DNA of 64,000 nt from Tetrahymena thermophila SB210. Lineage: Eukaryota; Ciliophora; Oligohymenophorea; Hymenostomatida; Tetrahymenidae. Position 1 is the first letter of the stretch. The number at the start of each line of letters is the position of its first letter. The DNA lies in assembly GCF_000189635.1 (NCBI RefSeq), contig NW_002476483.1, positions 165,117-229,116 on the forward strand. Reading direction: 5' to 3'. The notes beneath the pieces are model-generated. The model was not told the origin of the DNA. It saw only the letters and a list, made by a program, of their open reading frames with translations, and did no database searches. Position numbers and translations under genes: made by a program. Positions 1,624 to 35,005 of this stretch are shown piece by piece.

Positions 1624-3975
1624 TCAGTTAAAATAATCTTCAACTAATTCAGATTTTCTTAATAATTTTTTATGATGGGTCCCAGATATCGACTCCCTCC
1701 ATACCAGAGGATCCCGTATATCAACCCCCCACCATAGTTTATCTCTTATGTCTTTCTATTTTTAATCAAATAAATTTAACCTAAATTTTGTTCTATTACT
1801 TGTAGGTGTTATTGAACGGCTTAAAGAGAGTATAAAAGAGTTTTTATCTTTTTCGCTCATCTATTTGAACATTTATTTTAGAGCTGGGTCCAGTTAGTTG
1901 ATTAGCTTTTGATCTAAAGTGGATTAATCGTTTTTATGAGCTATATTTTAATAGGCTTAAAAGCTTTCACATGCCTTTTATAATTCTGATCTATTATCTT
2001 GATAAAGCAAGTCAATTTCTATATCTTCTTTTTTGTCATTTTATTTAAAACAAATATCAGTTTATATGGTTGGTTTAGGTAAGTAATCAAACAATTTGAG
2101 CTGATCTTGATCAAAAATTAGTCTTTTTAACTTTTCTAATTCATTTAGTTTATTAATAATGTTGAATATATCAATGTTATAATAAAGCTTTTCTCTACTA
2201 TAATTTATTATATTTTTTTATTCTTTGTAAAGTTTACTAAAACAACAAAAGATGGATGATTTTAAATACTACCAAACACTAAGTTACATAGAACTCATTT
2301 AATCATCAAAGTTCTTTTTGAACTAATCCTCAACTTATTTCTTGCTTTTCTCTTATTCTTTCTCAGAAAACCTTTTGGTTTGTTAGTTATCAATTTCTTA
2401 TTCTTGGTTTTCAGTTATTTCATCAACTGGTTTTTTTAATTAAGTGTTCTAGTCTTGAAAATAGCTCATCATCAGTTAGGAAATTTTTAATTAGTTGCTT
2501 TTTTTATTTTCGTTTTATTCCAAAACATTGTCTTATTCATTTAAATTGGAATACAATTAATCAGATTTTTAATCTTACTAAATAAGACTATTTTTTTGGG
2601 GGCTTGAAGGCTGAATTTGTTTTTACTCGTTTTCATCTATTTAACTTTTTTAACTAAAATTTAAACTTTTATTTTTTAATGTTTAATTAATTTTTTTCAA
2701 ATTCTCATCACTGCTAGTAAAATTAACTTTGGAATTCTTTATATTTTTTTACCTTTACTTCTTTTTTTTATTTCCTTACTTTTGTTATTGGCATATACTT
2801 TAATTTTCTTCTTTTTCCTCATTTTCTTATTTGCTTTTTAAACTACCTTCAAATTTAAATGCTTTGTTAATTAATTCAATATCTAACTTTGTCTGTGATA
2901 TTTTTTTACAAACCAAATAACCAATAGCAAGAAAACTCTAAGTAAATCCTCCAATTTCAGATAGAATAGAATTGAATCTTTAGTATGATCTTTTATAGAC
3001 ACCCTCTTTTTACTTTTCAAATCTGAAAAAAATGGTAAGAAAATAATCCTAAAACGATGGTGGATATTCCTTTTATATATAAAAAAATAAATATTTTAAA
3101 AGATTTTTAAACAATATTTTTAAACAAAAATAAAAATTAATTGCGCTATTTACAAAACTTTCTGAAAAACTATAAGCAGGAAATCTCTAAGTTGTCACAT
3201 CAGGAAAAAACCATCCAAAATCACTATACACATAATTATTACGGATGTAAACGTTAGCATCTTTTGGGAGTTCAGTACTAGTAGCCCAAAACATATCTCT
3301 AGAGTAAATTTTGAATGGATTGTCACTAACAGTTGGATCTACATAGGAGTCAGATATCTAAAGACCAAAGCTAGACTTTTAAAGAAATTTTTCCAAAACT
3401 TCTTAGGACTAACAATTTTTAGTGCATTTCTTAACTGTAATCTGAATTTCTGAGTAAACTATAGATGGGAAGTCCCCTTAAATTGGCAACTCAAAATCAG
3501 GAGGAAGACAATACATATTAGTGTAGTTAAGATTAAGATAGTATTTTTGGTTATCAAGATTTTAGAAATTTTCAATTGTGCAAGGTTGGACATTTATGCT
3601 CAACTGATTGAAAGTAGAGATATACTACTAACTAGTCTCATTGAAAGTTAAAACCTTTTAGTTCCAAAAAGCAGAGACTGTATAGATGCTTTCATCAATA
3701 TAATAATTAAAATTATCTTGATTTTCCATTGCAAAAGCCATGGGAAAACTTTTACTTGAAGCCTAAAATGCAGCAGGATCATCTACTTATCTTTCGTTGT
3801 AGATGACCTATGGATTATTTCTTTGAACTACATCTACAATTAATCCGAATAGCCTGTAAGAGATAAGTACATATATTATGAGGGTAACGTATGAACCTAA
3901 TCTTGTGTTATATGTTTGTTATTTGTTAAATCTTAGGAAAATTTAACTACCAAAGATGTCTAACTAATCAAGCAT
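1624..3975 (-). CDS. Two-pass membrane protein, family copy A (altered C-terminus)
   Basis: Exons 3975-3154 and 3069-1624 join in phase 0 across an 84-nt intron (donor GTAAATAG, acceptor AAAAG) to give 755 aa; I followed the frame from start to TGA and found no interruption. Residues about 27-47 form a membrane helix just after the N-terminal motif LDIFGSQIFLRFN. A roughly 250-residue segment with several cysteines follows, then a second helix at about 309-327 (LSEIGGF...YLVCKK), and a long charged glutamine-rich tail holding the motif KLYKEQKN and a leucine-rich coiled segment. This layout matches a large, functionally unassigned ciliate membrane-protein family. Unlike copies B-D, the last ~50 codons are replaced by an unrelated, GC-rich stretch. 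It lies divergent to the vWA relic at 5004. No function is assigned. Confidence 0.85.
1674..1740 (-). other. GC-rich insert forming a new C-terminus
   Basis: About 60 bp of roughly balanced base composition inside DNA that is otherwise nearly 80% A+T. Read on the minus strand it contains two diverged direct repeats, GTTGATATACGGGATCC and GTCGATATCTGGGACCC, and it codes tryptophan-rich sequence (LWWGVDIRDPLVW) in frame with membrane gene A. Copies B-D have nothing like it. Confidence 0.7.
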
Positions 3976-5003
3976 TTTATTATTATTTATTTTTCTAACT
4001 TATCTTAGAGGGTTTATTTTAATAATTATTTATTTTAATTTAGTTAAAGAATTGTGTATTGCTTATCAAAAAAAAGCATGAAAACACTTTGTTTATTATA
4101 TTTCACATTGAATAATTAAATTTGCCAATTTTTTTATTTTACAAGATCACCAATAGGACTATTTTTAGCGATTTATTAATAGTAAATTAACATTGTAATG
4201 ATTTTTAATTTTATTTATTTATTTGAAAAGAAATTCATTTATTTTTTTAAATTAAAACTTAATCTTTATTTGATCATAAAAGTCAATAACTATAATAAAA
4301 AATAATCTTATTTTAATAAGTATAATTTTTGTTTATTATGATGAAGGATTATGTTAAATCCTCAAAATAATATTTTGGGTGTTTATCACAGTAAAACATT
4401 AAAGGAATTACTTCAAAAAATAAATATTAAAAAAATGCAATCATAATAGAGTGAAAATAGTTTTAACAAAATTTTATAACAAATTAAAAGCAGTGATTTG
4501 AAATTTATTAAAATTTTGAATACATATTTAAATAGACTTTGATATTTAGTTTTTGTAGTGACAATATAATAATTTAAAAAGTGAAATAAAAATAATTTAA
4601 TAAAATAAATATTTTAAATTTAAATTATTCACCAATCAATCAATTACAGCTACTTTATATTAGAAAAGAAAAAAGCATAAAAATGTAAATTTTTTATTCT
4701 TAATAACTAAAGCTTTTTATTAAAAAAAATATATAAAATTAAAAAAATGTAAAAATTTTAATATTGTAACCAATTAAAATATTTTATTATATCATTTAAT
4801 CTTTTTTTAGTATTTTCATTTTTGAAACATCATCTAAATTTTATTTTATCCCTTTTTAAATTTATTTGTATTGAAAGCTGATCTATTATTATGATTATTT
4901 AAAATATCAGATTTTATGATATGAATTATTATTAATCCTTATTTTATAATCATACAACTATTTATATATGATATTTATGTTTGTTAAATACACATATTAA
5001 TAC
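3976..5003. other. Divergent intergenic region of module 1
   Basis: Shared upstream region of membrane gene A (minus) and the vWA relic (plus). The stretch 4340-4480 (beginning near AATCCTCAAAATAATATTTT) recurs at about 17950-18100, 21350-21490 and, in part, 29880-29990. No gene seen. Confidence 0.6.
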
Positions 5004-5445: not shown

Positions 5446-6286
5446 TTTTTAAAGATTCTTATGGCGATATTATACTCATTCTATTCAGTTTATTTAGTGC
5501 AATTAAATACAAAAAAATAAATTAAAGTCTCAAATTAGAATAAAAAGTTATTTTTCAAATATAGCAAAATGGTATATACTTAATTTATTTATTAGGTAAG
5601 CTAAGTAGAAATAAGATGGTTCAAAAGTAATTAAATCTGATTGAATTAAAATATATAATAAAAACTTATACAATAGGGCCAATTAGGGGTCTGGGTTATT
5701 TTAAATAAAATCATGAAGTCGAATCCAAAAGAAATTAAAGAAACTAAAAAAAATTCTAATGAATCATTCATTACCCAAAATGAAATAATTGGTAATTGAA
5801 AACCAAGGTAATAATATTAAATTTTGATAGTATTTAATTTATTTTATACATATGTCTTATTTTAATATTTAAAATTGATATTAAAATATATAGTTTTCTT
5901 TGGATTTGGAGAAAAACCCAACTAGTCATCCTATCTTTATTTTATTTAAGAAAAAAATAGGCATAAAAATATATTATTAAAATTTTAATTTTTTGTCTAT
6001 TTAAATACTATTTTATCATTTAATCTTTTTTTACCTTTTTATAAGATATGTTTATTTATGACAGGATAGATTTCATTTTTAAATATGAACTAATCCGATT
6101 TCATTTCAAATAAAGGATAGAAAAAATTTAATAATTAATGGATTAAAAAGACACACTTTAACTATTATTTTCTTAAAGATTAATTTTTGAAATTTTCTGA
6201 TAATTTGTTTGATCTATTATTTTGAATATTTTTAATATCAAATAAAAACTTATCAGAATTTATTATATCAATTTCTATTAATTATT
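5446..6286. other. Intergenic; end portion is a vWA 5' flank
   Basis: No gene is supported. From about 6035 the sequence matches the upstream flank of the other vWA genes, then jumps directly into their coding sequence at 6284-6287. A 28-codon open stretch at 5713-5799 is too short and unconserved to call. Confidence 0.5.
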
Positions 6287-8710
6287 TAGGAAGGCATTTG
6301 TTTAGAATCATTTGAAGCCAAATTCAACGAAAAAACCATAAAAGGAATCATCAAGGAAAAATCTGAGGCAAAAAACGAATATCAAGAAAATAAATAACAA
6401 GGTAATTTTGTTTCATATGCTGAGACTTCTACAGAGAAAGATCAAGAATATTGCAAAATACTTTTAGGAAACTTGCCTCCAAGCCAGAAAGTAGAAATTA
6501 ATCTTGTTTTTTCTTAATAAATTTCTAGTGTACTGAATAAGTATTTTATCGCCTAAATACCACTTCAATACTGTGAGGATGAAGTCTCTGCTAAACTAGG
6601 AAAAAATGTTCTAACTTTAGATTTATTCTGCACTGGTAAAATTACTTATGCTGAATCAAGAGGATATCCTGCTTAAAAAAAGGTGATTGATGATAACACA
6701 ATTAAATTTGATTTGAGTCAAGCTCTTTAATAAAAAGATTTAGGTTTCTAACTTGTATTTGCTTTCGAAGGCATGTTTGAACCTCAAGTTATTTTTGGAT
6801 AAAGCAAGATTTACCACGAAGACTCAGTAAAAAGAGCTGTTCTTCCCGTGAGCAACTCTGTGATGGTTTCTTTTATTCCTAATTTTAATGAAGAAGTAAC
6901 TAAAGAGTTAGATGACGTTATTAGAGCAGCTATACATAAAGGAGATGATGTTTTTAGTGATGAATTCTAGTAAAAAATTAACTCAGAGGTAATTGATCAC
7001 CTGAATTCTTCAAGAAGTGAGTTTATTTTCTTATTAGATAGGAGTCGATCTATGAGTGGATAGCCTATACAAAAGGCTTGTGAGGCTCTTATTTTATTCT
7101 TAAAGAGTCTCCCTATAGATAGCTACTTCAATGTAGTCAGCTTTGGCTCTTCTTATGAAAAGTTATTTTAATCTTCAATCAAATATGATACCAATAGCCT
7201 AGAAAAAGCAATCAAAATAATAAAAAATTACACTGCTGATTTAGGAGGAACCGAAATATATAAACCTCTATAAAGCGTTTTTAAGGAAACTAAAATTGAT
7301 GGATACAACAAATAAATATTTTTGTTGACAGATGGTGAAGTCAAATCCCCCAAAGAAGTTGTAAAGTTGATTAGAAAAAATAATAAACTTAACAGAATCA
7401 ACTCTATTGGTTTTGGGTCAGGTGCAGATAAGTATTTAATTGAGGAGAGTGCTATTACTGGCAAAGGTATTTCTAAGATTGTAGATCTTAAATGTGATTT
7501 GTCTGAAATTATCATCGAAATGCTCTCTGTTTGCTTAACTCCTACCCTCGATAAGTTCCAAATAAATTATGATAACAATATTTTTGAATCTACTTATCCT
7601 TCTATGACTAACTTTCCTTGCGTCTTTAAAGATGAAGTACTAAATATTCATTTCTTTTTCAAACCTACTTTAGACTGTTCAAGCTTGAATGAAACATAAA
7701 AGTAAATTTCAATAGAATATTTCGATTCTAGTAAAAAATAAAAAATTTAGAAGTAAATAAAGTTAGAAATGTAAGATAGTTTTGTATGTAACCCAGGGCT
7801 ATAATAATCTGTATTTAAAATTGGAAAACAACTCTTTTTAAATGAAAATATAATGTAAGAAGACTATAACATATCGTTAGTTTAGTAATCAATTGACTAT
7901 TAGCTTCTCACAGAAAAAACTGCTTCAATCTGTGTAATTAAAACTTTGAATGATGAATAAAAAATTATGTATGGAAATATACCTCATATTAAATAGTATA
8001 CAAACTATTAGTAAGAAGACATATTAGAAGAAATGAATAACATTATTAATAGTGCAAACTAGATTGATTTGCAAATTAATAACATTATTAATAGTGCAAA
8101 CTAGATTAGTTTGCAAATTAATTAAGATTTAAATAGTTAAATAACGAAATTATCAATGATAAATATGGGATCATCAATTTCTTTAAAATATAATACATCT
8201 TTATAAAATTCTTAAAAATCCACAACATCTTCATCAATATTTACTAAAATTAAGAATTTTTTCACATCTTCAAAAAAATATGAAAGCAATCAGAATTATG
8301 AATTTTTATAAATGTCTTAAAGTAGTAATTATTAATTTGATGATCATTTTAAAAATACATTACCTGAAAGAGAGTACTAGAAAGAAGAAAGCTATCCTTC
8401 TATCCCTCAGATAGAAAATTTGCTTAATTTGGTAAATTCTGAAGGTGCATGGAAGTTTGATGAAAATTTAATAAAACAATATTGCCAATAAAATTTGGAC
8501 ACAATAAAGAAATATTCCTCTAAATTTAAATCTCAAGATGGATTTATGACTTTGCTTATTTTAATTCTACTTGAAATCTATTATGCTTAGCATAAATAAA
8601 AGTGGATACTCATTTCTAAAAAATCAAATAACTTTCTAAAATCTTAGATAAATTAATCTGAAGATTTAATTTAAACTAAAGAAAGTATCAGATAATTAAT
8701 ATCTTAATGA
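6287..8710 (+). pseudogene. VIT/vWA gene with deleted 5' end
   Basis: One frame stays open from the block GICLESFEAKFN to the TGA at 8708, so the VIT domain remainder, the vWA domain and the C-terminal region are all present. The first ~70 codons, including the start, are missing: the upstream flank runs straight into coding sequence near 6284. The first in-frame ATG (6771) lies inside the VIT domain, and an in-frame TGA lies upstream. The metal site reads DRSRS instead of DRSGS in the sister copies, keeping the D-x-S-x-S residues; LTDGE and GGTEI are retained. Probably a recently truncated pseudogene, though an upstream exon donated by new sequence cannot be excluded. Confidence 0.7.
8037..8120 (+). 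repeat. 42-bp in-frame tandem duplication
   Basis: Two copies of a 42-bp unit containing CATTATTAATAGTGCAAACT, starting at 8041 and again at 8083, inside the variable linker of the vWA gene. It adds 14 codons and does not disturb the frame. The sister genes lack it. Confidence 0.85.
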
Positions 8711-9398: not shown

Positions 9399-10037
9399 AG
9401 AATATGTTTTAAATTCAAATATTAAGTTTAAATAATGAAAGCTAAATTAATTTATCTGTGATATCTATCTCTTCATAAAACCAAATATATAAAAATTAAT
9501 ATTTGATAATTAATTAATTAATTATTATATTTATTTGTTCTTTTTATCTATCTATCTATTTATTATTAATTAATTAAATTTCATAAATTGCTATTCAATA
9601 TTTTTGAAAAAATAAATAAATGATATAATAGAAAAAAAGTTACTACAAATTAGAAGAAGTAATTATTAATTTTTAAATTAATATCCTTTAAATTTATATA
9701 AATTAATAAAAAAAGTTTTTAAGCTCTTCGCTTTTATCTCATTAGAATCTTTATATTGATCTCCAGTATATTTTATTTATAAATATTATTTTTATTATTA
9801 TTAATACTTTTTATTTATTTAACTTTCGATTTATTTAAATAAATAATTTTTATAAAAGAAATTATCATCATTCTTAATTTATTTATTGATTTTTATTAAA
9901 ACAAACTAAAATTTTTTAGCTATCTATTTTAACTTAATTTTTATTTTAATTTTTAAATAATTTATTAATCATTTTTTATCATTTTATATTTTTTCTTCAT
10001 TTTTTGCTATTGATAATTAAACTTAATAAAAACATTA

Positions 10038-13000
10038 TATTTATTTTGGATTGTAGTATTTTTAATTATAAAAGTTAATTTAAAACATTAAAGCTCTTTT
10101 AGTTTATTTGATTTGATTTGATTTGTTTTCCTTTTTCTTTTTATTATGATTACTTATTTTTTATTCTTTGTTAATTTTATTAATTATTCATTATCTTATT
10201 TTTTTCATATTTTTTCTTCATTTTTTCCTCCTAATTAACTAGAGTGAAATAAATGCCTATTTAATTTATAAACATTTTTTCCTTCTAATTAACTATTTAA
10301 TGATATATTTTTTCTTCAAATTTTAAAAAGTGACAATTAAATTGGTGATGAAGGTGCATCAGGCCTAGGTTCTGCTTTAAAAAATTGCATTAATCTTTCA
10401 AAAATGAAACTTTACCTTGCGTAAAAACAGTTTATTTGTTTTAGATTGTGATATTTTTAATTATAAAAACTAATTTAAAGCAATAAAGCTCTTTTTTCTT
10501 TTTCTTTTTTTTGTACTTGCTTTTTTTTGTTCTTTTTTTGTTAACTTATCTCATCATTTTATTTTCAACTTGTGCTTTTATTTTTAATTAATTAATTTTA
10601 TTATTTGATATTTTTTCTCATTTTTTCCTTCTAATTTACTATTTAATGATATATTTTTTCTTCAATATTTAAAAAGTGACCATTAAATTGGTGATGAAGG
10701 TGCATCAGGCTTAGGTTCTGGTTTAGCAAATTGCATTAATCTCTAAAATTTGACACTTTACCTTCGGTAAAAATAGTTTATTTGTTTTGGATTGTGATAT
10801 TTTTAATTATAAAAACTAATTAAAAAAAAGAAAGCTCTTTTTTCTTTTTTTTTTTATTGTGCTTGATTTGCTTTTTTTTTTATTTCTTTGTTAATATAGA
10901 TCATAATTTTATTTTCAACTTTTGCTTTTATTATTAATTAATTAATCTTATTATTTCATATTTTTTCTTCATTTTATCCTTCTAATTAACTATTTAATGA
11001 CATATTTTTTCTTCAATATTTAAAAAGTCGCAATTAAATTGGTGCAATGGGTGCATCAGGCTTAGGTTCTGCATTAGCAAATTGTATTAATCTCTCAAAT
11101 TTGACACTTGACCTTTTGTAAAAACAGTTTATTTGTTTTGGATTGTGATATTTTGAATTATAAAAACTAATTAAAAACAATAAAGCTCATTTTTCTTTTT
11201 CTTTTTCTTTTTATTGTGCTTGCTTTTTTTTAGTTCTTTCTTTGTTAATTTAGCTCATAATTTTATTTTCAACTTTTGCTTTTATTATTAATTAATTAAT
11301 CTTTGTATTTCATTTTTTATTTCATTTTTTCCATCTAATTAACTATTTAATGATATATATTTTTTCTTCAATATTTAAAAAGTGAAAATTAAATTGGTAA
11401 TGAAGGTGCATCAGACTTAGGTTCTGGTTTAGCAAATTGCATTAATCTCTCAAATTTGACACTTGTCTTTTAGTAAAAACAGTTTATTTGTTTTAGATTG
11501 TGATATTTTGAATTATAAAAACTAATTAAAAAAAATAAAGCCCTTTTTTCTTTTTCTTTTTATTGTGCTTGCTTTGCTTTTTTTTTGTTCTTTCTTTATT
11601 AATTTAGCTCATCATTTTATTTTCAACTTTTTCTTTTATTATTAATTAATTTTATTATTTCATATTTGATCTTCATTTTTTCCTTCTAATTTACTATTTA
11701 ATGATATTTTTTCTTCAATATTTAAAAAGTAAGAATTAAATTGGCGACGAAGGTGCATCAGGCTTAGGTTCTGGTTTAGCAAATTGCATTAATCTCTCAA
11801 ATTTGACACTTGATCTTCGGTAAAAACAGTTTATTTGTTTTGGATTGTGATATTTTTAATTATAATTGCTTTTTTTTCTTCTTTCTTTCTTTGTTAATTT
11901 AGCTCGTAAATTTATTTTCAACTTTTGCTCTTATTATTAATTAATTAATCTTATTATTCCATATTTTTTCTTCATTTTTTCCTTCTAATTAACTATTTAA
12001 TGATTTATTTTTTCTTCAATATTTAAAAAGTTCTAATTAAATTGATGTCGAAGGTGCATCAGGCTTAGGTTCTGGTTTAGCAAATTGCATTAATCTCTCA
12101 AATTTGACACTTGACCTTTCGTAAAAACAGTTTATTTGTTTTGGATTGTGATATTTTGAATTATAATTGCTTTTTTTTCTTCTTTCTTTGTAAATTTAGC
12201 TCATAATTTTATTTTCAACTTTTGCTTTATTATTAATTAATTAATCTTATTATTCAATATTTTTTCTTCATTTTTTCCTTCTAATAACTATTTAATGACA
12301 TATTTTACTTCAATATTTAAAAAGTTTCAATTTAATTCATAACGAAGGTGCATCAGGCTTAGGTTCTGCATTAGCAAATTGCATTAATCTCTCAAATTTG
12401 ACACTTGACCTTTAGTAAAAACAGTTTATTTGTTTTGGATTGTGATATTTTTAATTATAAAAACTAATTAAAAACAATAAAGCTCTTTTTTCTTTTTCTT
12501 TTTATTGTGCTTGCTTTTTTTTTTGTTCTTTCTTTCTTTGTTAACTTAGCTCATCATTTTATTTTCAACTTTATCTTTTATTATAATTAATTAATCTTAT
12601 TATTCCATATTTTTTCTTCATTTTTTCCTTCTAATAAACTTTATTTTTTCTTCAATATTTAAAAAGGTGGAATGGAATTCATGACGAAGGTGCATCAGGC
12701 TTAGGTTCTGCATTAGCAAATTGCATTAATCTCTCAAATCTGACACTTTAACTTTAGTAAAAAAAGTTTATTTGTTTTGGATTGTGATATTTTAAATTAT
12801 AAAAACTAATTAAAAACAATAAAGCTCTTTTTTTCTTTTTCTTTTTATTGTGCTTGCTTTTTTTTTGTTCTTTCTTTCTTTTTTAACTTAGCTCATAATT
12901 TTATTTTCAACTTTATCTTTTATTATTAATTAATTAATCTTATTTATTATTCCATATTTTTTCTTCATTTTTTCCTTCTTATAAACTTTATTTTTTCTTC

Positions 13001-13860
13001 AATATTTAAAAAGGGATAATTATATTGGTGATGAAGGTGCATTAGACTTAGGTTCTGGTTTAGCAAATTGCATTAATCTTTCAAATTTGACAATTAACCT
13101 TGAGTAAAAACAGTTTATTTGTTTTGGATTGTGATATTTTTAATTATAAAAACTAATTAAAAACAATAAAGCTCTTTTTTCTTTTTCTTTTTATTGTGCT
13201 TGCTTTTTTTTTGTTCTTTCTTTCTTTTTTAACTTAGCTCATCCTTTTATTTTCAACTTTATCTTTTATTATTAATTAATTAAACTTATTATTCCATATT
13301 TTTTCTTCATTTTTTCCTTCTAATAAACTTTATTTTTTCTTCAATATTTAAAAAGTGGCAGTCAAATTGGTACTATGGGTGCATCAGGCTTAGGTTCTTG
13401 TTTAGCAAATTGCATTAATCTCTCAAATTTGACTCTTCACCTTTACTAATATCAATTTAATTATTATGGAAGGTGATATTTTGTATTATAAAAACTAATT
13501 TATAGCAATAAAGCTCTTTTTTCTTTTACTTTTTATTGTGCTTGCTTTTTTTTTATTCTTTTTTTGTTAATTTAGATAATAAATTTATTTTCAAAGTTTG
13601 CTTTTATTATTAATTAATGTTATTTATTATTTCATATTTTTTCTTCATTTTTTGCTTCTAATAAACTTAATTTTTTCTTCAATATTTAAAAAGTAAGCCT
13701 GAAATTGGTGATGAAGGCGCATAAGGCTTAGTTTCTGGTTTATCAAATTGCATGAATCTCTCAAATTTGACACTTTATCTAGAGTAAAAATAGTTTATTT
13801 ATTTTGGATTGTGATTTTTTAAAATATAAAAATGAATATAAAACAAAAAAGTCCTTTGAA
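10038..13860 (+). repeat. Tandem array of LRR exon-intron units
   Basis: Eleven head-to-tail units with spacings of 346, 351, 355, 347, 301, 294, 342, 347, 342 and 338 bp. Each holds one 90-nt exon plus a conserved intron that begins GTAAAAACAGTTTATTTG, has a T-rich middle, and ends TTCAATATTTAAAAAG. The two short units (after exons 5 and 6) both lack the same AAACTAATTAAAAACAATAA-like block. A decayed intron start at about 10038 suggests that a twelfth unit once preceded the array. Confidence 0.9.
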
Positions 13861-14102
13861 TTTATTTGATAGCTTTTATTTGATTTATTTTTTTATCTTT
13901 TTTATTCCACTAATAATATTTTTTGATAAATTTAAAGAATAATTTTTAATTTAAAAGTTTATTCTATTTTGATATTTATTTAAAATTTACACAAATTTAT
14001 AATAAAATTTTTAGCTCTATGAGTAAATCATAAGGATTCAAACTAATAAGCAAGTGTCTAAAATCAAAAAGATTAGTTGTCTTTAAAATATAATTCGATT
14101 GA
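10331..14102 (+). CDS. Leucine-rich-repeat protein built of serial 90-nt exons (5' end not found)
   Basis: Exons: 10331-10420, 10677-10766, 11028-11117, 11383-11472, 11730-11819, 12031-12120, 12325-12414, 12667-12756, 13014-13103, 13356-13472 (see below), 13694-13783, 14015-14102. Each LRR exon starts after AAAAAG and ends before GTAAAAA, has one base before and two bases after whole codons, and so can be joined in any order. Each codes one ciliate-type LRR of the pattern xNQIGDEGASGLGSGLANC followed by INLSNLTLxL; no TGA occurs in any. Exon 10 has lost the usual donor, but GTGATATT at 13473 gives the same phase. The terminal exon codes SKRLVVFKIQFD then TGA, the typical end of Tetrahymena LRR proteins, and its phase fits. 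LRRs bind protein partners; the partner is unknown. The start exon is missing, so the gene may be incomplete. Confidence 0.75.
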
Positions 14103-14950: not shown

Positions 14951-17505
14951 TCATAATTAAGATAGTTAATTCATATTACTTACAAAAGCATTCAATTTCT
15001 TTTTTTTATTATTTTGACATATTTCTTCAAATTCATCATCTTAAATCTAACTCTCAGAACTTTAATTGATAAATTATTGATTTTAATTGTCTGGTTATTT
15101 GGATTGCTGATATTTTATGTCATTAAATTATTATTATTCAAATTAATTAAGCTTAAATGCTGTTGGATTACTTTTAGATGATATTTAAGGGTTTAAAAAG
15201 AGTCTAAAAGAGTTTTTATCTTTTCCAAGTTTACTTTAGTTATTCTAGAAATTTTAATTTGATAAGTTTATTATAGATTATCTCATTGAAGGAGTTAAAT
15301 TTTAAAAAGATGTTATCCTATTATCTTCATTTTATGATATTGAATTTTTTAATACAACAGACTTTTCGTTTAACTATTTGAACATTTTTTTAAGAACAGG
15401 ATCAAGTTAATTGATTAGTTTTTGATCTAAAGTGGATTAATCACTTTTATAAGCTATATTCTGGTAGGCTTAAAAACTTTCACATGCTTTTTATAATTCT
15501 GATCTATTATCTTGATATAGCAAGTCAATTTCTATTTCTTCTTTTTTATCATTTTATTTCATAGAAATGTCAGTTTAGATGGTAGGTTTAGGTAAGTAAT
15601 CAAACAATTTTAGCTGATCTTGATCAAAAATTAGTCTTTTTAACTTTTCTAATTCATTTAATTTATGAATAATGTTGAATATATCAATGTTATAATAAAG
15701 CTTTTCTCTACTATAATTTATTATATTTTTTTACTCCTTGTGCAGTTTACTAAAATAACAAAAGATAGCCGATTTGAAATACTGCCAAATACTAAGTTAC
15801 ATAGAGCTCATTTAATTATCAAAGTTCTTTTTGAACTAATCCTCTACTTATTTCTTGCTTTTCTCTTATTCCTTCTCAGAAAACCCCTTGTTTTATAAGT
15901 TATTAATTTATTGTTCTTGATTATCAGGTATTCCAACTGATTTTTTAAATTATGTACTCTAATCTTAAATATAGCTCATTAATAGCTAAGAAATTTTTAA
16001 TTAATTGCCTTTTTTATTTTCGTTTTATTCCAAAACAGCATCTTATTCATTTAAATTACAATAAAATTTATCAGATTTTTAATCTTAACAAATAAGGCTA
16101 TTTTTTGGGGGGTTTTAAGGTAGAATTTGTTTTTAACCCTTTTCATTTATTTAGCTTTTTTAAATAATGCTTTATATATTATTTTTAGAAGGTTATTAAG
16201 TCTTTCTCAAATTTTCATCACTACTGCTAAAAATAACTTTGGAACTATTTTTTTTTTCTTAACTTTAGTTTGATTTTTTAAGCTTTTTTTCATTTCCTTG
16301 TTTTTGTTATTAATGTATTATACTTTTATTTGCTTCATTTTCCTCATTTTATTATTTACTTTTTAAACTCCCTTCAAATTTAAATGCTTTGTTAATGAGG
16401 TCAATATCTAACTTTGTCTGCGATATTTTTTTGCAAATTATATATCCAATAGCAAGAAAACTCTAAGTAAATCCTCCAATTTCAGACAAAATAGAACTAA
16501 ATTTTCTATAGGATCTTTTATAGACACCCTCTTTTTGCTTTTCAAATCTGAAATAAATGGAAAGAAAATAATCCTAAAACGATGATGGATAATCCTTTTA
16601 AAGAAAAAATATTTTTAAATTATTATTATTGTTTTTTAAATAAAAATTATGTGCAAAAAGAAAAAATTTGATATGCTATTTACTTAACTTTCATAAAAAC
16701 TATAAGCAGGTAATCTTTAAGTTGTTACATCAGTAAAAAGCAATCCGAAATCGCTATAAACATAATTATTACGGATGTAAACAGTCACATCTTTTGGAAG
16801 TTAAGTACTAGTAGACCAAAACATATCTCTGGAGTAAATTTTGAATGGATTATCACTAATAGTTGGATCTACGTAGGAGTCAGATAGCTAAAGACCAAAG
16901 TTAGACCTTTAAAGAAATTTGTCCAAAATTTCTTAAGATTAACAATTTTTAGTGCACTTCTTAACCATAATCTGAATTTCTGAATAAACTAAAGAAGTAA
17001 AGTCCCCTTAAATTGGTAACTCAAAATCAGGAGGAAGACAATACATATTAGTATAGTTAAGATTAAGGTAGTATTTTTAATTTTCAAGATTTTAGAAATT
17101 TTCTATTGTGCAGGGTTAAACATTTATGCTTGTTTGATTCCAAGTATAAATATACTATTAATTAGCGTCATCGAAAGCTAAATGTTTTTAATTCCAAAAA
17201 GCAGTGACTGTATAAATGCTTTCATCAATAAAGTGATTAAAATCAATAGGATCTTCCATTGCAAATGCCATGGGAAAACTTTTACTTGACGCCTGAAATA
17301 TAGCAGGATCATCAACTTATCTTTCGTTGTAGATAACTTCTGGATTATTTCTTTGAATTACATCTTCAATTAATCCAAATAGCCTGTAAAAGATAAGTAA
17401 ATATATTATGAGAGTAAAGTATGATCCTAATCTTGTGTTATATGTTTGTTTTTTGTTAAATCTTAGGAAAATTTAACTACCAAAGATATCTAATTAGTCT
17501 AGCAT
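14951..17505 (-). CDS. Two-pass membrane protein, family copy B
   Basis: Exons 17505-16684 and 16594-14951 join in phase 0 across an 89-nt intron to give 821 aa, the longest copy; frame checked through the exon join and most of exon 2. N-terminal motif LDIFGSQIFLRFN, first membrane helix at about 27-47, cysteine-bearing segment, second helix near 309-327 (LSEIGGF), then a charged Gln/Lys-rich tail that ends SNMNQLSQL. The tail includes the segment KLINQLDPVLKKMF, which in copy A is followed by different sequence. It is transcribed away from the vWA gene at 18474, with 968 bp between the two starts. A member of a ciliate-expanded family of unknown role; membrane location follows from the two helices only. 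Confidence 0.85.
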
Positions 17506-18473
17506 TTTATAATTATTTCTTAAAAGCTTTCTAACTTATTTAATGCGTTAATTTTATTAATTTTTTATTACAATTTAATTAAAGAATTGTTTATATTCTA
17601 CTTTTCAAAATAGCCTAAAAAATAAAAATTAATAATTTGCTTAGTTAATATTTGAATAGTTAATTATATTCATTTTGTTATTTTCAACATCATCAAAAGG
17701 AAGGATTTTTTTACCAATCTCTTTATTTCGTAGTAGATTTATCTTATTACAATTTTTAGTTTTATTTATTTGAAAAGAAATCCATTTAATTTATTCTTTA
17801 TTTGATCAAATAAGTAAATAAAAAATAACTTTAGTTATTTATTTATAATCCTTTTTAAATTAATTTTTATTCTAAATTTAATTTAAATAAAAATAATCTA
17901 ATTTTTTTAAGTATTAATTTTGTTTATTTAGCCAAGCTGAAATGTTATGTTAAATCCTCAAAATAATATTTTGGATTTTTACTTAAGAAAATCTTTAATA
18001 AAATTTAAAACAAGGTTTAAAAAAATACATTAAAGCGATTACTTCAAAAAATAAATATTAAAAAATTAAACACTATAGAGTCAAAATAATTTTAACATAT
18101 CAAAACTAATTTTACTAATTGATTAATAACTGTCTAATTATTGATGACATGATGAATGGAATTTTTAAATATGAAATAATTAGATTTCATTACAGATAAA
18201 AGATAGAAAAAATTTTATAATTAGTGGATTTAAAAGATACAATTTAACTATTATTTTCTTAATGATAAATTTTTGAAATTTTTTGATAATTTTTTTGATC
18301 TATTATTATGATGATTTTTATTATCAAATAAACACGTATCAGAATTTATTATATCAATTACTATTAATTCCTATTTTAGAAATATTTAACTATTTTTGAA
18401 ATACACTTATGCTTTCAATAATATTTTGATAAATAATTAATTAATAAGAAAACTAAAGCATTATTATTAATAG
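17506..18473. other. Divergent intergenic region of module 2
   Basis: Shared upstream region of membrane gene B and the vWA gene at 18474. Its two halves are repeated beside the other pairs: the half near the membrane gene at about 4020-4300, 29410-29750 and 34392-34560, the other half before each vWA gene. Probably carries both promoters, but no specific motif could be identified. Confidence 0.6.
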
Positions 18474-21158
18474 ATGAATCATAAATTAAAACTAAGACCT
18501 TTTGACTTTTAACTTGCTACTCATGACTCTTAGAAATCATCTAAACTACCAGCGACACTTAAAAGCGTTTAATATAAATGCTAAATTATCAATAACATTA
18601 TGAAAACAGCTTTAACTTAAACATTTGTTAGCGGTTCAGACAATGAATACTCTGAAACCATTTATTATTTTCCAATTTAAGAAGGCATTTGTTTAGAATC
18701 ATTTGAAGCTAAATTTAACGAAAAAACCATAAAAGGAATCATCAAGGAAAAATCTTAGGCTAAAAGCGAATATCAAGAAAATAAATAACAAGGTAACTTT
18801 GTTTCATATGCTGAGACTTCTACTGAGAAAGATCAAGACTATTGCAAAATACTTTTAGGAAACTTGCCTCCTAGCCAAAAATTAGAAATTAATCTTGTTT
18901 TTTCTTAATAAATTTCTAGTTTACTGAATAAGTATTTTATCGCTTAAATACCACTTCAATACTGTGAGGATGAAGTCTCTGCTAAACTTGGAATAAATGT
19001 TCTAACTTTAGATTTATTCTGCACTGGAAAAATTACTTACGCTGAATCAAGAGGTTATCCAGCTTAAAAAAAGGTGATTGATGATAACACAGTCAAATTT
19101 AATTTGAGTCAAGCTCTTTTATAAAAAGATTTAGGTTTCTAGCTTGTATTTGCTTTCGAAGGCATGTTTGAACCTCAAGTTATTTTTGGATCAAGCATGA
19201 TTTACAACGAAGACTCAGTAAAAAGAGCTGTTCTTCCTGTGAGCAACTCTGTGATGGTTTCTTTTATTCCTAATTTTAATGAAGAAGTAACTAAGGAGTT
19301 AAATGACGCAATTAGAGCAGCTATACATAAAGGAGATGATGTCTTTAGTGACGAATTCTAGTAAAAAATGAACTCAGAGGTAATTGATCACCTGAATTCT
19401 TCAAGAAGTGAGTTTATTTTCTTATTAGATAGGAGTGGATCTATGATTGGATAGCCTATACAAAAGGCTTGTGAGGCTCTTATTTTATTCTTAAAGAGTC
19501 TTCCTATAGATAGTTACTTCAATGTAGTCAGCTTTGGCTCTTCTTATGAAAAGTTATTTTAATCTTCAATCAAATATGATACCAATAGCCTAGAAAAAGC
19601 AATCAAAATAATAAAAGAGTATACTGCTGATTTAGGAGGAACCGAAATATATAAACCTCTATAAAGTGTTTTTAAGGAAACTAAGATTGATGGATACAAT
19701 AAATAAATATTTTTGTTGACAGATGGTGAAGTCGAATCCCCCAAAAAAGTTGTATAGTTGATCAGAAAAAATAATAAATTTAACAGAATCAACTCTATTG
19801 GTTTTGGTTCAGGTGCAGATAAGTATTTAATTGAGGAGAGTGCAATAGCTGGCAAAGGCATTTCTAAGATAGTAGATCTTCAATGTGATTTGTCCAAAAT
19901 AATCATTGAAATGCTCTCTGTTTGCATAACTCCTACCCTCGATTAGTTCCAAATAAATTATGATAAAAATATTTTTGAATCTACTTATCCTTCTATGACT
20001 AACTTTCCTTGTGTCTTTAAAGATGAAGTACTAAATATTCATTTCTTTTTCAAGCCTACTTTAGACTGTTCGAGCTTGACTGAAGCACAAAAGTAAATTT
20101 CAATAGAATATTTCGACTCTCGTAAAAAATAAAAAATTTAGAAGTAAATAAAGTTAGAAATGTAAGATATCTTTACTTGCAACCCAGAGCTATAATAATC
20201 TGTATTTAAAATTGGAAAACAAATATTTTTAAATGAAAATATAATGTAAGAAGACTGGAACACATCATTAGTTTAGTAATCAATTGACAATTAGCTTCTC
20301 ACAGAAAAAACAGCTTTGATTTGTGTAATTGAAACTTTGAATGATGAATAAAAGATTTAGTATGAAAATATATCCCATAGTAAATAGTATAAAAACTATT
20401 AATAAGATGGGGAATTGGAAAATATATCTAATTAGATTAATAGTTTGATAAAAACTAGTTTGATAATTAGTTAATAGTTAAATAATTAAAATGCGACATT
20501 ATAAACAATTAAAAAGGGATCATCAAGTTCTTTAAAATCCAGAACATTATCATCAATATTTACTAAAATTAAGAATTTTTTCACATCTTCAAAAAAATCT
20601 AGTGAATGCCCTGCTTCTACTAATTAATTTTGTAATGATAAAAAGGATTTTATTGAAGATTAGCAACAATTTTTGAACCTAGAGAGTAATTTTTAATTTG
20701 AAGGTCTAAAAGAGAGTCTATAAAAAGACTATAATCATATTAATGAATATGAATTAGAGTAAGATAAATGCGATGAAAATGATTTTGATGAGGGTTTTAA
20801 AAATAAATTACCTCAAAGAGAAAATTAGTAAGAAGGTAGCCTTCCTTCTATTCCTAAGATAGAAAATTTGCTTAATTTGGTAAATTCTGAAGGTGTATGG
20901 AAGTTTGATGAAAGTTTAATTAAATAATATTGTCAAAAAAATATGGAAACAATAAAGAAATATTCCTCTAAATTTTAATCTCAAGATGCATTTATGACTT
21001 TGCTTATCGTAATTCTACTTGAAACCTATTATACTTAGCAAAAATCTAAGTGGATGCTCATATTTAAAAAATCAAATAACTTTTTAAAATCATAGATAAA
21101 TTAATCTGAAGATTTAATTTAAATTAAAGAGAGTATCAGATAATTAATATCTAAATGA
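18474..21158 (+). CDS. VIT and von Willebrand A domain protein, copy 1
   Basis: A single exon of 894 aa with no TGA before 21156. The start MNHKLKLRPFDF is supported because the sister genes begin identically after the same AATAG context. A VIT domain (the β-rich domain of inter-alpha-trypsin-inhibitor heavy chains) spans about residues 45-200. The vWA domain spans about 312-490, with the metal-binding D-x-S-x-S as DRSGS at 319-323, the loop GGTEI, and LTDGE with Asp 417. A variable Ser/Lys-rich linker follows, then a conserved C-terminal block with NLVNSEGVWKFD, similar to the LQ..DGSW motif of VWA5A-like proteins. No signal peptide or membrane helix is evident, so a cytosolic ligand-binding role is inferred. 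It pairs with membrane gene B and is followed 717 bp later by copy 2. Confidence 0.9.
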
Positions 21159-21875
21159 TTTGAAATAATTTTTTTTGAAAAAGACAAATTATTTTTTCTT
21201 AATTCATTTTAACTAAAATATTTTTATTTACCTTGAAAAGAATTTATTTTCTTTCTTAATTAATTCATGTTTATGACCAATTTTTTGTTCAAACTTTAAA
21301 AAAAAAATATAATTTTTCTAATTTTTAATAAGCTTTTGCTGAAGAATTATGTTAAATCCTCAAAATAATATAAAGAAAATCGTTAGCAAAACTTAAAACA
21401 AAGTTTAAAAAAATATATTAAAAGGAAGGACTTCAAAAAATAAATACAAAAAAATGAAATCATAATGGAGTGAAAATATTTTTTAAATAGCATATCAATA
21501 CTAGTTTTACTACTAATTTATTAATGATGATCTATTTATTTATCATAAGGTGGATGGAAATTTTAAATATGAACTAGTTAGATTTTATTTCAGATAAACG
21601 ATAGAATTTAACAATTACGTGGATTTAAAATATACAATTTAACTATTATTTTGTTATAGATTCATTTTTCAAAATTGTTGGTGATGCAATTTGATCTACT
21701 ATTATTTTTTTTATTATCATGTAGACACTGATATCAGATTTTATTATATTAATTTTTATTAATCCTTGCTTTAGAAGTTTACAATTATTTTTGTATGGTA
21801 TTTATGTTTGCAGTAAAAAACCCATCAATAAATAATTAATTAATTAAAAAAATAGTAAAGCATAATTATTAATAG
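21159..21875. other. Intergenic between tandem vWA genes
   Basis: From about 21340 the sequence repeats the vWA upstream flank, beginning with the block TTATGTTAAATCCTCAAAAT. This shows that copy 2 was duplicated together with its promoter region. Confidence 0.7.
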
Positions 21876-24566
21876 ATGAATAATAAATTAAAGATAAGAT
21901 CTTTTGACTTTTAACTTGCTACTGATGACTCTTAACAATCATCCAAAGTACCAGCGACACTTAAAAGTGTTTAATATAAATGCTAAATTATCAACAACAT
22001 TATGAAAACAGCTTTAACTTAAACATTTATTAGCAATTCAGACAAGGAATACTCAGAAACAAATTATTACTTTCCAATTTAGGAAGGCATTTGTTTAGAA
22101 TCATTTGAAGCTAAATTCAACGAAAAAACCATAAAAGGAATCATCAAGGAAAAATCTTAGGCAAAAAACGAATATCAAGAAAACAAATAACAAGGTAACT
22201 TTGTTTCATATGCTGAGACTTCTACAGAGAAAGATCAAGACTATTGCAAAATACTTTTAGGAAACTTGCCTCCTAATCAGAAAGTAGAAATTAATCTAGT
22301 TTTTTCCTAATAAATTTCTTGTATATTAAATAAGTATTTTATTGCTTAAATACCACTTCAATACTGTGAGGATGAAGTCTCTGCTAAACTTGGAATAAAT
22401 GTTCTAACTTTAGATTTATTCTGCACTGGAAAAATTACTTACGCTGAATCAAGAGGTTATCCAGCTTAAAAAAAGGTGATTGATGATAACACAGTCAAAT
22501 TTGATTTGAGTCAAGCTCTTTTATAAAAAGATTTAGGTTTCTAGCTTGTATTTGCTTTCGAAGGCATGTTTGAACCTCAAGTTATTTTTGGATCAAGCAT
22601 GATTTACCATGAAGACTCAGTAAAAAGAGCTGTTCTTCCTGTGAGCAACTCTGTGATGGTTTCTTTTATTCCTAATTTTAATGAAGAAGTAACTAAGGAG
22701 TTAGATGACGCAATTAGAGCAGCTATACATAAAGGAGATGATGTCTTTAGTGACGAATTCTAGTAAAAAATGAACTCAGAGGTAATTGATCACCTGAATT
22801 CTTCAAGAAGTGAGTTTATTTTCTTATTAGATAGGAGTGGATCTATGAGTGGATAGCCTATACAAAAAGCTTGTGAGGCTCTTATCTTATTCTTAAAGAG
22901 TCTTCCTATAGATAGTTACTTCAATGTAGTCAGCTTTGGCTCTTCTCATGAAAAGTTATTTTAAACTTCAATCAAATATGATACCAATAGCCTAGAAAAA
23001 GCAATCAAAATAATAAAAAATTACACTGCTGATTTAGGAGGAACCGAAATATATAAACCTCTATAAAGCGTTTTTAAGGAAACTAAAATTGATGGGTACA
23101 ACAAATAAATATTTTTGTTGACAGATGGTGAAGTGGAATCCCCCAAAGAAGTTGTAAAGTTGATAAAAAAAAATAATAAATATAACAGAATTAACTCTAT
23201 TGGTTTTGGATCAGGTGCAGATAAGTATTTAATTGAGGAGAGTGCAATTGCTGGCAAAGGCATTTCTAAGATTGTAGATCTTCAATGTGATTTATCTGAA
23301 ATTATCATCGAAATGCTCTCTCTTTGCATAACTCCTACCCTCGATTAGTTCCAAATAAATTATGATAACAATATTTTTGAATCTACTTATCCTTCTATGA
23401 CTAACTTTCCTTGTGTCTTTAAAGATGAAGTACTAAATATTCATTTTTTTTTCAAACCTACATTAGACTGTTCAAGCTTGACTGAATCACAAAAGTAAAT
23501 TTCAATAGAATATTTCGACTCTCGTAAAAAATAAAAAATTTAGAAGTAAATAAAGTTAGAAATGTAAGATAGCTTTACTTGCAACCCAGAGCTATAATAA
23601 TCTGTATTTAAAATTGGAAAACAACTATTTTTAAATGAAAATATAATATAAGAAGATTGTAGCTCATCGTTAATTTAGTAATCAATTGACTATTAGCTTC
23701 TCACAGAAAAAACTGCTTTGATTTGTGTAATTGAAACTTTGAATGATGAGTAAAAAACTATGTATGAAAATATATCCCATAGTAAATAGTATACAAACTA
23801 TTAATAAGATTCTGATTTGGAAAACATATCTAAATAGGTTCATTGTTTGAAAACCGCTAATTTGTCAATTACTTAACTTTTAATGGATTAATCTGCAACA
23901 TTATAAACGATTAAAAAGGGATCATCAAATTCTTTAAAATCCAACACATCTTCATCAATATTTACTAAAATTAAGAATTTTTTCACATCTTCAAAAAAAT
24001 CTAGTAAATGCCCTGCTTCTACTAATTAATTTTGTAATGATTAAATGGATTTTATTGAATATTAACAAAATTGTTTCAACCAAGAGAGTGATTGTTAATT
24101 TGAAGAGCTTAAGGAGAGTCCAAAAAAATAATTTTATAGATTTAGAGCACATTAATAATAGTTAGAAAAATAGGATGAAAATGATTATGATGAAGATTTT
24201 AAAAATAAAAAAAGTGAAAGAGAATACTAGCTAAAAGAAAAAGAAAGCTATCCTTCTATTCCTAAGATAGAAAATTTGCTTAATTTGGTAAATTCTGAAG
24301 GTGTATGGAAGTATGATGAAGGTTTAATTAAATAATATTGCAAAAAAAATATGGACACAATAAAGAAATATTCCTCTAAATTTAAATCTCAAGATGGATT
24401 TATGACTTTGCTTATTGTAATTCTACTTGAAACCTATTATGCTTAGCAAAAATCTAAGTGGATGCTCATTTCTAAAAAATCAATTAACTTCCTAAAATCT
24501 TAAATAAATTAATCTGAAGATTTAATTTAAATCAAAGAGAGTATCAGATAATTAATATCTTAGTGA
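21876..24566 (+). CDS. VIT and von Willebrand A domain protein, copy 2
   Basis: A single exon of 896 aa, in tandem with copy 1 and very similar to it. N-terminus MNNKLKIRSFDF, VIT domain in the first ~200 residues, vWA domain with DRSGS and LTDGE motifs at about residues 319 and 417, variable linker at about 630-790, and a C-terminal block with NLVNSEGVWKYDE. Substitutions relative to copy 1 are scattered in the conserved domains and dense, with length changes, in the linker. The 3' flank after 24700 matches that of copy 3 (about 37850-37930), so copies 2 and 3 share a more recent segmental origin there. Confidence 0.9.
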
Positions 24567-34391: not shown

Positions 34392-35005
34392 TTTTAAATT
34401 ATTTGTTTTCCACTTTCTAACTTTCGTTATTTGTTAATTTTACTAACTTTTTATTACAATTTAATTAAAGAATTTTTTGTGTCTGAATTTTCAAAATAGC
34501 TTAAAAAATAAAAATTAATAATTTGCTAAGTTAACATCAAACAAATATGAATAATTAATTTAACTCATTTTTTTTTCAAAAAAGGTATATTAAAAAAATG
34601 AAATCATAATAGAGTGAAAATATTTTTAACTTATGAAAACTAATTTTACTACTAATTGATTAATCTATCTATTGATGACAAGATGGTTGAAATTTTTAAA
34701 TATGAACTAATTAGATTTTATTACAGATAAAAGATAGAAAAAATGTAACAATTACTAGATATTTAAAAGACACAATTTAACTATTAATTTCTTAAAGATT
34801 CATTTTTGAAATTTTTTGATAATTTTTTGGGTATTATTCTGATTATTATTATTATCATGTAGACACTAATATCAGATTTTATTAGATGAATTATTTTTAA
34901 TGTCTATTTTAGGAGTATTCAACTATTTTTGTATGATACTTAAGCTTTCAATCATATTCTGATAATTAATTAATTAAAAAAATAGTAAATCATTATTATT
35001 AATAG
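34392..35005. other. Divergent intergenic region of module 4
   Basis: Shared upstream region of membrane gene D and vWA copy 3, shorter than in the other modules. The vWA-proximal ~430 bp match the flanks before 18474 and 21876. The shortest intact example of the divergent region, and thus the best place to look for common promoter elements. Confidence 0.6.

What the first reader, a model, noticed from the sequence alone, without database searches (positions are those of the whole stretch)
10331..13783. Eleven interchangeable single-LRR exons with constant cores and variable edges
Each 90-nt exon codes one leucine-rich repeat and has the same splice phase on both sides, so any exon can join any other. 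The core (ASGLGSGLANC then INLSNLTL) is almost invariant. The first codons of the exons give D, D, R, E, K, S, F, W, D, G and K, the sixth and seventh positions vary (DE, AM, NE, VE, TM), and the last residues and split codon also vary. In LRR folds these are the positions around the exposed beta-strand that usually contacts ligand. Introns are as conserved as the cores, so neutral decay alone does not explain variation focused at the exon edges. The plan recalls modular LRR cassettes used for recognition diversity, such as lamprey VLRs; whether shuffling or alternative splicing happens here is unknown.
Basis: partly seen in the sequence, partly recalled or inferred. Interest (0 to 1): 0.78.

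Follow-up and report, generated by a model that had tools for sequence, protein, structure and literature searches.

The report
Tetrahymena LRR exon array, hypervariable edges
This is one gene of a known family of pond-ciliate genes built from near-identical repeat cassettes, and the few amino acids expected to face a binding partner differ from cassette to cassette far more than the introns beside them, as expected if selection is building a recognition repertoire.

Summary
Eleven 90-nt LRR exons lie at 10331-13783 in one phase, with variable edges and constant cores and introns. The gene is larger: a first exon (9620-9765) and a terminal exon with TGA (14015-14102) are shared with other arrays.

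What I add is site resolution. Diversity at the xxLxLxx strand codons is 0.46 in the window and 0.47 in 57 held-out exons; introns give 0.09 and 0.105. Pairs with near-identical flanks differ by 3 or more bases in the 8-nt exon edges in 52% of cases, against 0-3% in windows clear of the edge codons. Silent change at codons 1, 26 and 28 fits selection better than a mutation hot spot; codons 3, 6 and 7 do not. Linkage is low.

Best reading: concerted evolution plus diversifying selection on the ligand face, as in Podospora het-d/het-e. Ligand, expression and alternative splicing are untested.

The parts
9620..9765 (+). First coding exon: ATG, 48 whole codons (MIQQKKSYYKLEEVII...LYIDL) plus 2 nt of a split codon; donor GTATAT at 9766
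   Evidence: its tail is matched by an exact-core pattern in 15 other copies in 14 of the 20 fetched loci; 11 of these 15 have the same 146-nt length from ATG; of the other four, L033 is cut by the end of the stretch and L027, L028, L039 do not keep the ATG in this register; 293 genome places match its 36-nt tail at <=3 mismatches, reversed control 0
10331..10420 (+). LRR exon 1 (90 nt, phase 2 on both sides)
10677..10766 (+). LRR exon 2
11028..11117 (+). LRR exon 3
11383..11472 (+). LRR exon 4
11730..11819 (+). LRR exon 5 (unit 301 nt against 338-355 for eight others)
12031..12120 (+). LRR exon 6 (unit 294 nt)
12325..12414 (+). LRR exon 7
12667..12756 (+). LRR exon 8
13014..13103 (+). LRR exon 9
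13356..13445 (+). LRR exon 10; acceptor AG present, donor lost
13446..13447 (+). Lost 5' splice site of exon 10 (CT where the other units have GT); the next GT is GTGATA at 13473, 27 nt further on and in phase; unspliced reading meets TGA there
13694..13783 (+). LRR exon 11, last of the array
14015..14102 (+). Terminal exon ending in TGA (SMSKSQGFKLISKCLKSKRLVVFKIQFD stop)
   Evidence: the region 3' of the last LRR exon aligns across 19 arrays including the window; a like terminal reading with a TGA after 26-32 residues in 18 of these 19 (window included; L039 differs in its last third); L033 was not caught by the search pattern

Best explanation
The array is the body of a complete or nearly complete gene of the Tetrahymena group III 90-bp-exon LRR family. 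It encodes a solenoid of up to eleven 30-residue LRRs between an N-terminal and a C-terminal exon that are shared across the family. The modules (exon plus intron of about 250 bp) belong to a genome-wide pool of thousands that is kept alike by duplication and recombination between arrays (concerted evolution). On this homogenised background selection diversifies a few codons: codon 28, the split codon, codon 1, and less strongly codons 26, 3, 6 and 7. In the LRR fold the first four (28, split, 1, 26) are x positions of xxLxLxx on the concave strand; the others lie in the stretch after it. The intron lies in the middle of that strand, so a crossover in the near-identical introns makes a new combination of half-strands, and a crossover in the exon core exchanges the two edges. 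The result is a repertoire of binding surfaces. SHOWN: gene anatomy; the localised excess of variation; its excess over introns; low linkage; in-frame maintenance of exons. INFERRED: that the positions face a ligand; that the proteins are recognition proteins; that shuffling happens in the germline. UNKNOWN: ligand, expression, cell location.
For: Diversity per nucleotide in 162 young units: split-codon nts 89 and 90 0.75 and 0.62, codon 1 0.64-0.71, codon 28 0.33-0.63, intron mean 0.063, exon outside the edge set 0.054. Same test in the window's 11 exons (0.464, intron 0.087) and in 57 held-out exons (0.470, intron 0.105). Local test with flanks alike to <=1 in 100 bases: 52% of 150 pairs (nts 1-8) and 52% of 575 pairs (nts 83-90) differ by >=3 bases, while windows clear of the edge codons give 0-3% (9-66 pairs each). 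With pairs from different loci only it is 63% of 111 and 56% of 453, against 0 in the eight other windows tried (10-20 pairs each). Edge divergence is 0.34 per site at intron divergence 0.002 (23 pairs, many from one array) and 0.41-0.43 in all higher bins. Modelled from intron mutation rates, silent change at codons 1, 28 and 26 fits selection and not a plain mutation hot spot. 164 of 174 young units keep AG-90-GT and 0 of these 164 hold TGA. Residues at the split codon: S, R, G, Y, D, F, N make up 104 of 123; V, L, P are absent though the common NNT form could encode them (in 46 held-out junctions V occurs once). Linkage is low, mean r2 0.001-0.07 within introns; no association across the intron; array L021 shows all four combinations of two 5' edges and two 3' edges on introns with 0-1 differences. 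2874 modules and 293 first-exon tails in the genome, reversed controls 0.
Against: The acceleration fitted (about 80-fold over introns at codons 1 and 28) is implausibly high if taken literally; recombination must partly uncouple introns from edges, so rates cannot be read off pairs. Codons 6 and 7 show more silent change than the selection model predicts (0.325 against 0.143; 0.716 against 0.269), and at codon 7 the hot-spot prediction lies inside the interval (0.497; interval 0.416-1.091); codon 3 is fitted badly by both models. pN/pS at codons 1 and 28 is only 0.8-1.3 and edge pS is itself 12-31 times the intron value. In the core pN/pS is 1.1-2.3 and pN is 1.9-3.3 times the intron value in close pairs, which is unexplained. 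One of the ten pairs with identical introns is identical at the edges too. Low linkage could also come from a star-like history with repeated mutation. The published gene-level Ka/Ks is below 1 (PMC6564038). No RNA, no second strain or species, no structure model and no ligand were available. The window's own copy has a lost splice site.
Confidence: 0.72

Rival explanations
1. Old retained edges: the edge variants are ancient and are only kept and shuffled, while gene conversion recently homogenised introns and cores. Selection then acts against homogenising the edges, not as fast replacement.
For: Linkage is low and edges are recombined; edge divergence depends little on intron divergence; silent diversity at edge codons is also high.
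Against: Conversion tracts would leave a gradient of diversity in the intron next to the exon; none is seen, although the first intron bases are also held by splicing. Third bases lying between or beside the variable ones (nts 7, 13, 82, 88) show 4 departures, 3 of them silent, in 656 letters, below the roughly 19 silent ones that intron rates predict (own arithmetic); codon preference may hold these sites too.
Confidence: 0.2
2. Targeted mutagenesis of the exon edges (a mutator aimed at these nucleotides), with little selection.
For: Variation is confined to a few nucleotides and includes whole-codon differences such as AGC/TTT on identical introns; silent change at edge codons is about 20 times the intron rate; codon 7 fits it.
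Against: Predicted silent divergence is too high at codons 1 (0.66 against 0.34 [0.21-0.51]), 28 (1.21 against 0.32 [0.11-0.54]), 26 (0.29 against 0.03), 3 (0.48 against 0.03) and 6 (0.59 against 0.33 [0.20-0.47]). Conserved Leu and Asn codons lie between the variable ones. Residue choice is strongly non-random. No mutator is known for these genes (recalled).
Confidence: 0.05
3. Decaying tandem array: a pseudogene whose exons drift.
For: Exon 10 has lost its donor site, and without splicing there the reading ends at TGA; no expression data.
Against: All 11 exons are in frame without TGA; first and terminal exons are open and alike in other arrays; cores are as conserved as introns while edges are not. 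The lost donor could be bypassed in frame by skipping exon 10 or by the GT at 13473. Still possible for this single copy, not for the family.
Confidence: 0.08
4. Relaxed constraint: edges are neutral, and introns and cores are held by purifying selection.
For: Edges are near saturation.
Against: Edge bases are 43-63% G+C at nts 2-4 and 89-90, against 16% in introns, far from mutational equilibrium; residue use is restricted; introns do diverge in 20 full-length lower-scoring units of the family (intron identity to young units 0.82, against 0.955 among 40 young units), so introns are not held fast.
Confidence: 0.04

Closest known systems
Tetrahymena group III 90-bp-exon LRR genes (Xiong et al. 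2019, PMC6564038)
   Same: Exactly 90-nt exons, phase 2 introns, six leucine codons centred on exon nts 36, 48, 66, 75, 81 and 87, introns near 257 bp, nucleotide-level similarity between units, thousands of dispersed copies
   Different: Nothing found in anatomy. The paper's main text reports gene-level Ka/Ks below 1; the words hypervariable, diversifying, solvent and positive selection do not occur in it. Its supplementary logos, which I could not see, may show the variable positions.
Podospora anserina het-d/het-e WD-repeat genes (Paoletti et al. 2007, PMC1805685, abstract read)
   Same: Repeats exchanged within and between genes (concerted evolution), with a few interaction-surface codons per repeat under diversifying selection
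   Different: WD repeats in NLR proteins, a family of 10 genes, known allorecognition role; here LRRs, each in its own exon, thousands of modules, no NOD domain detected, no known role
Plant NLR and R-protein LRRs with variable xxLxLxx positions (search listing only)
   Same: The same strand positions vary
   Different: Irregular repeats without module homogenisation, attached to NB-ARC domains (recalled)
Lamprey variable lymphocyte receptors (recalled)
   Same: LRR modules, variable concave face
   Different: VLRs are assembled somatically; nothing here shows somatic assembly, and no LRRNT/LRRCT caps were detected
PRDM9 zinc-finger arrays and TAL-effector repeats (recalled)
   Same: Near-identical tandem modules differing at contact residues
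   Different: DNA-binding; different folds; not one repeat per exon

Membership tests
Tetrahymena group III 90-bp-exon LRR genes | Consecutive exons of exactly 90 bp | tested here: met
   11 of 11 in the window by position; 10 of 11 with AG and GT
Tetrahymena group III 90-bp-exon LRR genes | Phase 2 introns on both sides | tested here: met
   All exons read in one frame with a codon split 2+1
Tetrahymena group III 90-bp-exon LRR genes | Leucine codons centred on exon nts 36, 48, 66, 75, 81, 87 | tested here: met
   Codons 12, 16, 22, 25, 27, 29: Leu in 150-164 of 164 exons; positions from the paper
Tetrahymena group III 90-bp-exon LRR genes | Nucleotide-level similarity between units and long introns (about 257 bp) | tested here: met
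   Intron identity 91.1%; unit spacing 294-355, so introns of 204-265 nt
Tetrahymena group III 90-bp-exon LRR genes | Physical association with REP retrotransposon in the micronuclear genome | not tested
   No micronuclear genome or REP sequence was searched
Tetrahymena group III 90-bp-exon LRR genes | Ciliate genetic code and Tetrahymena host | tested here: inconclusive
   TAA and TAG read through inside shared frames, genome 101 Mb; species not identified
Repeat families with homogenised repeats and diversified interface codons (het-d/het-e type) | Repeats exchanged within and between genes | tested here: met
   Units hardly more alike within an array (intron 0.062, edges 0.46) than between arrays (0.076, 0.57); low linkage; four-combination case in L021
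Repeat families with homogenised repeats and diversified interface codons (het-d/het-e type) | Diversifying selection at a few interface codons | tested here: inconclusive
   Edge pN 21.6-32.6 times intron in 49 disjoint close pairs, but edge pS also 12.3-30.7 times; model comparison favours selection at codons 1, 26 and 28 only. No tree-based codon test was run
Repeat families with homogenised repeats and diversified interface codons (het-d/het-e type) | NOD (NACHT/NB-ARC) domain in the same protein | tested here: not met
   Pfam finds LRR_6 as the clear family (plus a bare DUF6180 match) in the spliced 377-aa form, no NOD domain
Lamprey variable lymphocyte receptors | LRRNT/LRRCT cysteine caps | tested here: not met
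   No LRRNT or LRRCT match in Pfam at E up to 0.1
Lamprey variable lymphocyte receptors | Somatic assembly of modules | not testable with these tools
   One assembly only

The most novel reading that the evidence does not exclude
A single-celled eukaryote keeps a genome-wide recombining pool of nearly three thousand LRR half-strand cassettes, with the intron placed inside the binding strand, so that germline recombination in the introns keeps making new combinations of ligand-contact residues: a population-level recognition repertoire in a free-living cell, comparable in logic (not descent) to lamprey VLRs.
Probability: 0.3. Interest if true: 0.85.

Novelty: new variant of a known kind. Interest (0 to 1): 0.6.

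Why it matters
The function of these very numerous, fast-turning Tetrahymena genes is open; the published view rests on purifying selection at gene level (PMC6564038). Finding the variation concentrated at ligand-face codons, with everything else homogenised, says which residues to test, gives a quantitative reason to treat the family as recognition proteins, and offers a unicellular parallel to fungal and animal repeat-based recognition repertoires.

Tried and rejected
Literature: searches for Tetrahymena with leucine-rich repeat and positive selection (5 papers), Tetrahymena with LRR genes and hypervariable (none) and ciliate with leucine-rich repeat and diversifying selection (5 papers) gave no paper on the point by title and abstract start; (3 papers) held only PMC6564038 as a paper on these genes by title. 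pN/pS by counting was uninformative on its own because edge codons are saturated. A mutation hot spot and neutral drift were considered and judged unlikely, with codon 7 as an exception in favour of the hot spot. Codons 6-7 occur mainly as two block alleles (GATGAA and GCAATG). A first comparison with 'older' units (60 low-scoring units) was flawed: 40 of the 60 are only partial matches, many of them the last unit of an array; one search repeats it with the 20 full-length ones. Expression, alternative splicing, micronuclear context and REP neighbours were not testable or not tested. Sampling: the 20 discovery loci (L021-L040) were chosen from places most like window unit 3, so they are not a random sample; the window's own units are among the 174 young units, and 9 of the 164 kept exons are the window's; its unit 11 falls below the score cut because its intron match is cut short, and its exon 10 fails for the donor. 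Units starting later than model position 9 or ending before 110 were dropped; 10 of 174 young units were dropped for lacking AG-90-GT in register; two more were dropped for the intron alignment (162). The 8 held-out loci were picked from the top of the pattern list, not at random, and that list asks for a core match; 57 of 60 units were kept for exons and 44 for introns, with no score cut. Pairs share units and are not independent, except the 49 disjoint pairs.
Full report
WHAT IS THERE. The window lies in a 101-Mb, 445-contig genome that reads TAA and TAG as glutamine. The next GT is 27 nt on, at 13473, and in phase; unspliced, the reading ends at TGA there. Ten of 174 young units lack AG-90-GT in register; read by eye, this is the only one of the ten in which length and acceptor are intact and the donor base itself is changed, the others having a changed start or an internal deletion.

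THE GENE IS LARGER THAN THE FINDING. Upstream, 9620-9765 is an open first exon (ATG, 48 codons plus 2 nt). Its tail is matched by an exact-core pattern in 15 further copies in 14 of the 20 fetched loci; 11 of the 15 have the same 146-nt length from ATG, one is cut by the end of its stretch and three do not keep the ATG in register. The 36-nt tail occurs at 293 places of the genome with up to 3 mismatches (reversed control 0). Downstream, the sequence after the last LRR exon aligns across 19 arrays including the window, and 14015-14102 is a terminal exon with TGA; a like reading with TGA after 26-32 residues is found in 18 of the 19. The joined reading gives 407 aa if exon 10 is used as 90 nt, 377 if skipped, 416 if extended to 13472. 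Pfam finds LRR_6 (E 9.7e-27) and no NOD, kinase or VLR cap domain in the 377-aa form; a DUF6180 match just above its cut-off and three sub-threshold matches are not taken as informative.

IT BELONGS TO A PUBLISHED FAMILY. Xiong et al. 2019 (PMC6564038; abstract, sections 9, 17, 19 and 27, and find passages read; [quoted passage not shown] These features are met here. They propose exon shuffling by unequal crossing over, possibly with retrotransposition, suggest bacterial recognition as one possibility, and read Ka/Ks below 1 as purifying selection. The array as such is therefore not new. An anchor pattern finds 2874 modules in this genome (reversed control 0).

THE NEW PART: WHERE THE VARIATION SITS. 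In the 11 window exons diversity is 0.464 at codons 26, 28, 1 and the split codon, 0.371 at codons 3, 5, 6 and 7, 0.083 elsewhere in the exon and 0.087 in introns (0 of 20000 permutations reach the strand-intron difference). In 162 units from the window and 20 loci the split-codon nts 89 and 90 reach 0.75 and 0.62 and codon 1 0.64-0.71, against an intron mean of 0.063. In 57 exons of 8 held-out loci the values are 0.470 (strand), 0.365 (codons 3, 6, 7), 0.060 (rest) and 0.105 (intron, 44 units). In pairs whose 100 flanking bases differ at most once, 8-nt windows at nts 1-8 and 83-90 differ by 3 or more bases in 52% of pairs; windows clear of the edge codons give 0-3%, some on as few as 9 pairs. 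With pairs from different loci only the figures are 63% and 56%, against 0 in eight other windows. Edge divergence is 0.34 per site at intron divergence 0.002 and 0.41-0.43 in all higher bins up to 0.107; the closest bin (23 pairs) is dominated by array L021 and includes one pair with no edge difference.

WHAT THE POSITIONS ARE. Alignment to solved LRR chains puts T-L-D-L-(split)-(codon 1)-N on the canonical xLxLxxN strand, so codons 26, 28, split and 1 are x positions of xxLxLxx. That these face the concave side is established for LRR proteins (recalled; one search lists plant papers on the motif, titles and abstract starts seen). No structure model was made. The intron cuts the split codon, inside the strand.

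SELECTION OR MUTATION. Edge codons are saturated, so pN/pS by counting is 0.8-1.3 at codons 1 and 28; in the core it is 1.1-2.3. In 49 disjoint close pairs (mean intron divergence 0.016) edge pN is 21.6-32.6 times and edge pS 12.3-30.7 times the intron value. A codon model driven by intron mutation rates separates the cases in part: with selection alone, predicted pS is 0.237, 0.281 and 0.019 at codons 1, 28 and 26 (observed 0.343, 0.316, 0.034, all with intervals that hold the prediction); with a hot spot it is 0.664, 1.21 and 0.291, outside the intervals. At codon 3 both models miss; at codon 6 both miss, on opposite sides; at codon 7 the hot-spot value is inside the interval and the selection value is not. 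Codons 6 and 7 occur mainly as two blocks. The fitted factor of about 80 should not be taken as a rate. Residue use is restricted: S, R, G, Y, D, F and N make up 104 of 123 split-codon residues, with V, L, P, M and E absent (M and E are also hardly reachable because nt 1 is mostly T); in 46 held-out junctions V occurs once and E twice (from percentages). Codon 1 is rich in G, Y, D, E and S, with 8 W in 164, a make-up reminiscent of antibody binding sites (recalled). In 20 full-length lower-scoring units, whose introns are 82% identical to the young ones, codons 28 and 1 are again the two most variable.

SHUFFLING. Mean linkage within introns is r2 0.001-0.07 in every distance class (15 sites; chance 0.006); among exon sites it is 0.20-0.26 within 6 nt and at most 0.014 beyond. 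Edges on either side of an intron are not associated (906, 535 and 701 of 1000 shuffles reach the observed value); codon 1 with codons 6/7 is (0 of 1000), codon 28 with its neighbours weakly (31 and 32 of 1000), codon 1 with codon 28 not (183 of 1000). Units are little more alike within than between arrays (intron 0.062 and 0.076; edges 0.46 and 0.57). In L021 four units carry all four combinations of two 5' edges and two 3' edges with 0-1 intron differences. This agrees with the ectopic recombination already published.

HOW IT PROBABLY WORKS. Modules multiply and exchange; introns and cores stay alike; selection keeps changing the residues that meet a partner. [quoted passage not shown] The Tetrahymena case differs in fold, in scale and in having the intron inside the binding strand. 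What the proteins bind is unknown.

LIMITS. One genome, loci chosen by similarity, no RNA, no structure, no population data. The core shows an unexplained excess of replacement change in close pairs (1.9-3.3 times intron). 'Not in print' rests and on word counts in the paper's main text; its supplementary logos were not seen.

Noticed in passing
window 1624-37690: A series of alike + strand ORFs (6191-8710, 18315-21158, 21732-24566, 34937-37690), one of which (21732-24566) has VIT and VWA domains by Pfam, alternates with copies of a minus-strand gene (about 1624-4065, 14951-17604, 26894-29600, 31871-34490) that has no Pfam match in a 283-aa N-terminal stretch. The LRR gene sits between one of each.
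   Followed up: partly
window 38487-47451: Two neighbouring + strand genes look like potassium channels of the cyclic-nucleotide-gated type in tandem (from ORF translations and recalled motifs only).
   Followed up: no
window 9620-9765 and 11 other first exons of the same length: The first exon also has variable positions (codons 7, 9, 10, 34, 43 and 47, and the split codon) within an otherwise conserved stretch.
   Followed up: partly
window 11730-12324: Units 5 and 6 are both shorter (301 and 294 nt) than the other eight (338-355), the difference lying in the introns, which suggests a duplication inside the array.
   Followed up: no
exon nts 17-22 of all modules: Codons 6-7 occur mainly as two blocks, GATGAA and GCAATG, which could differ by two compensating 2-nt indels rather than by point changes.
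   Followed up: partly
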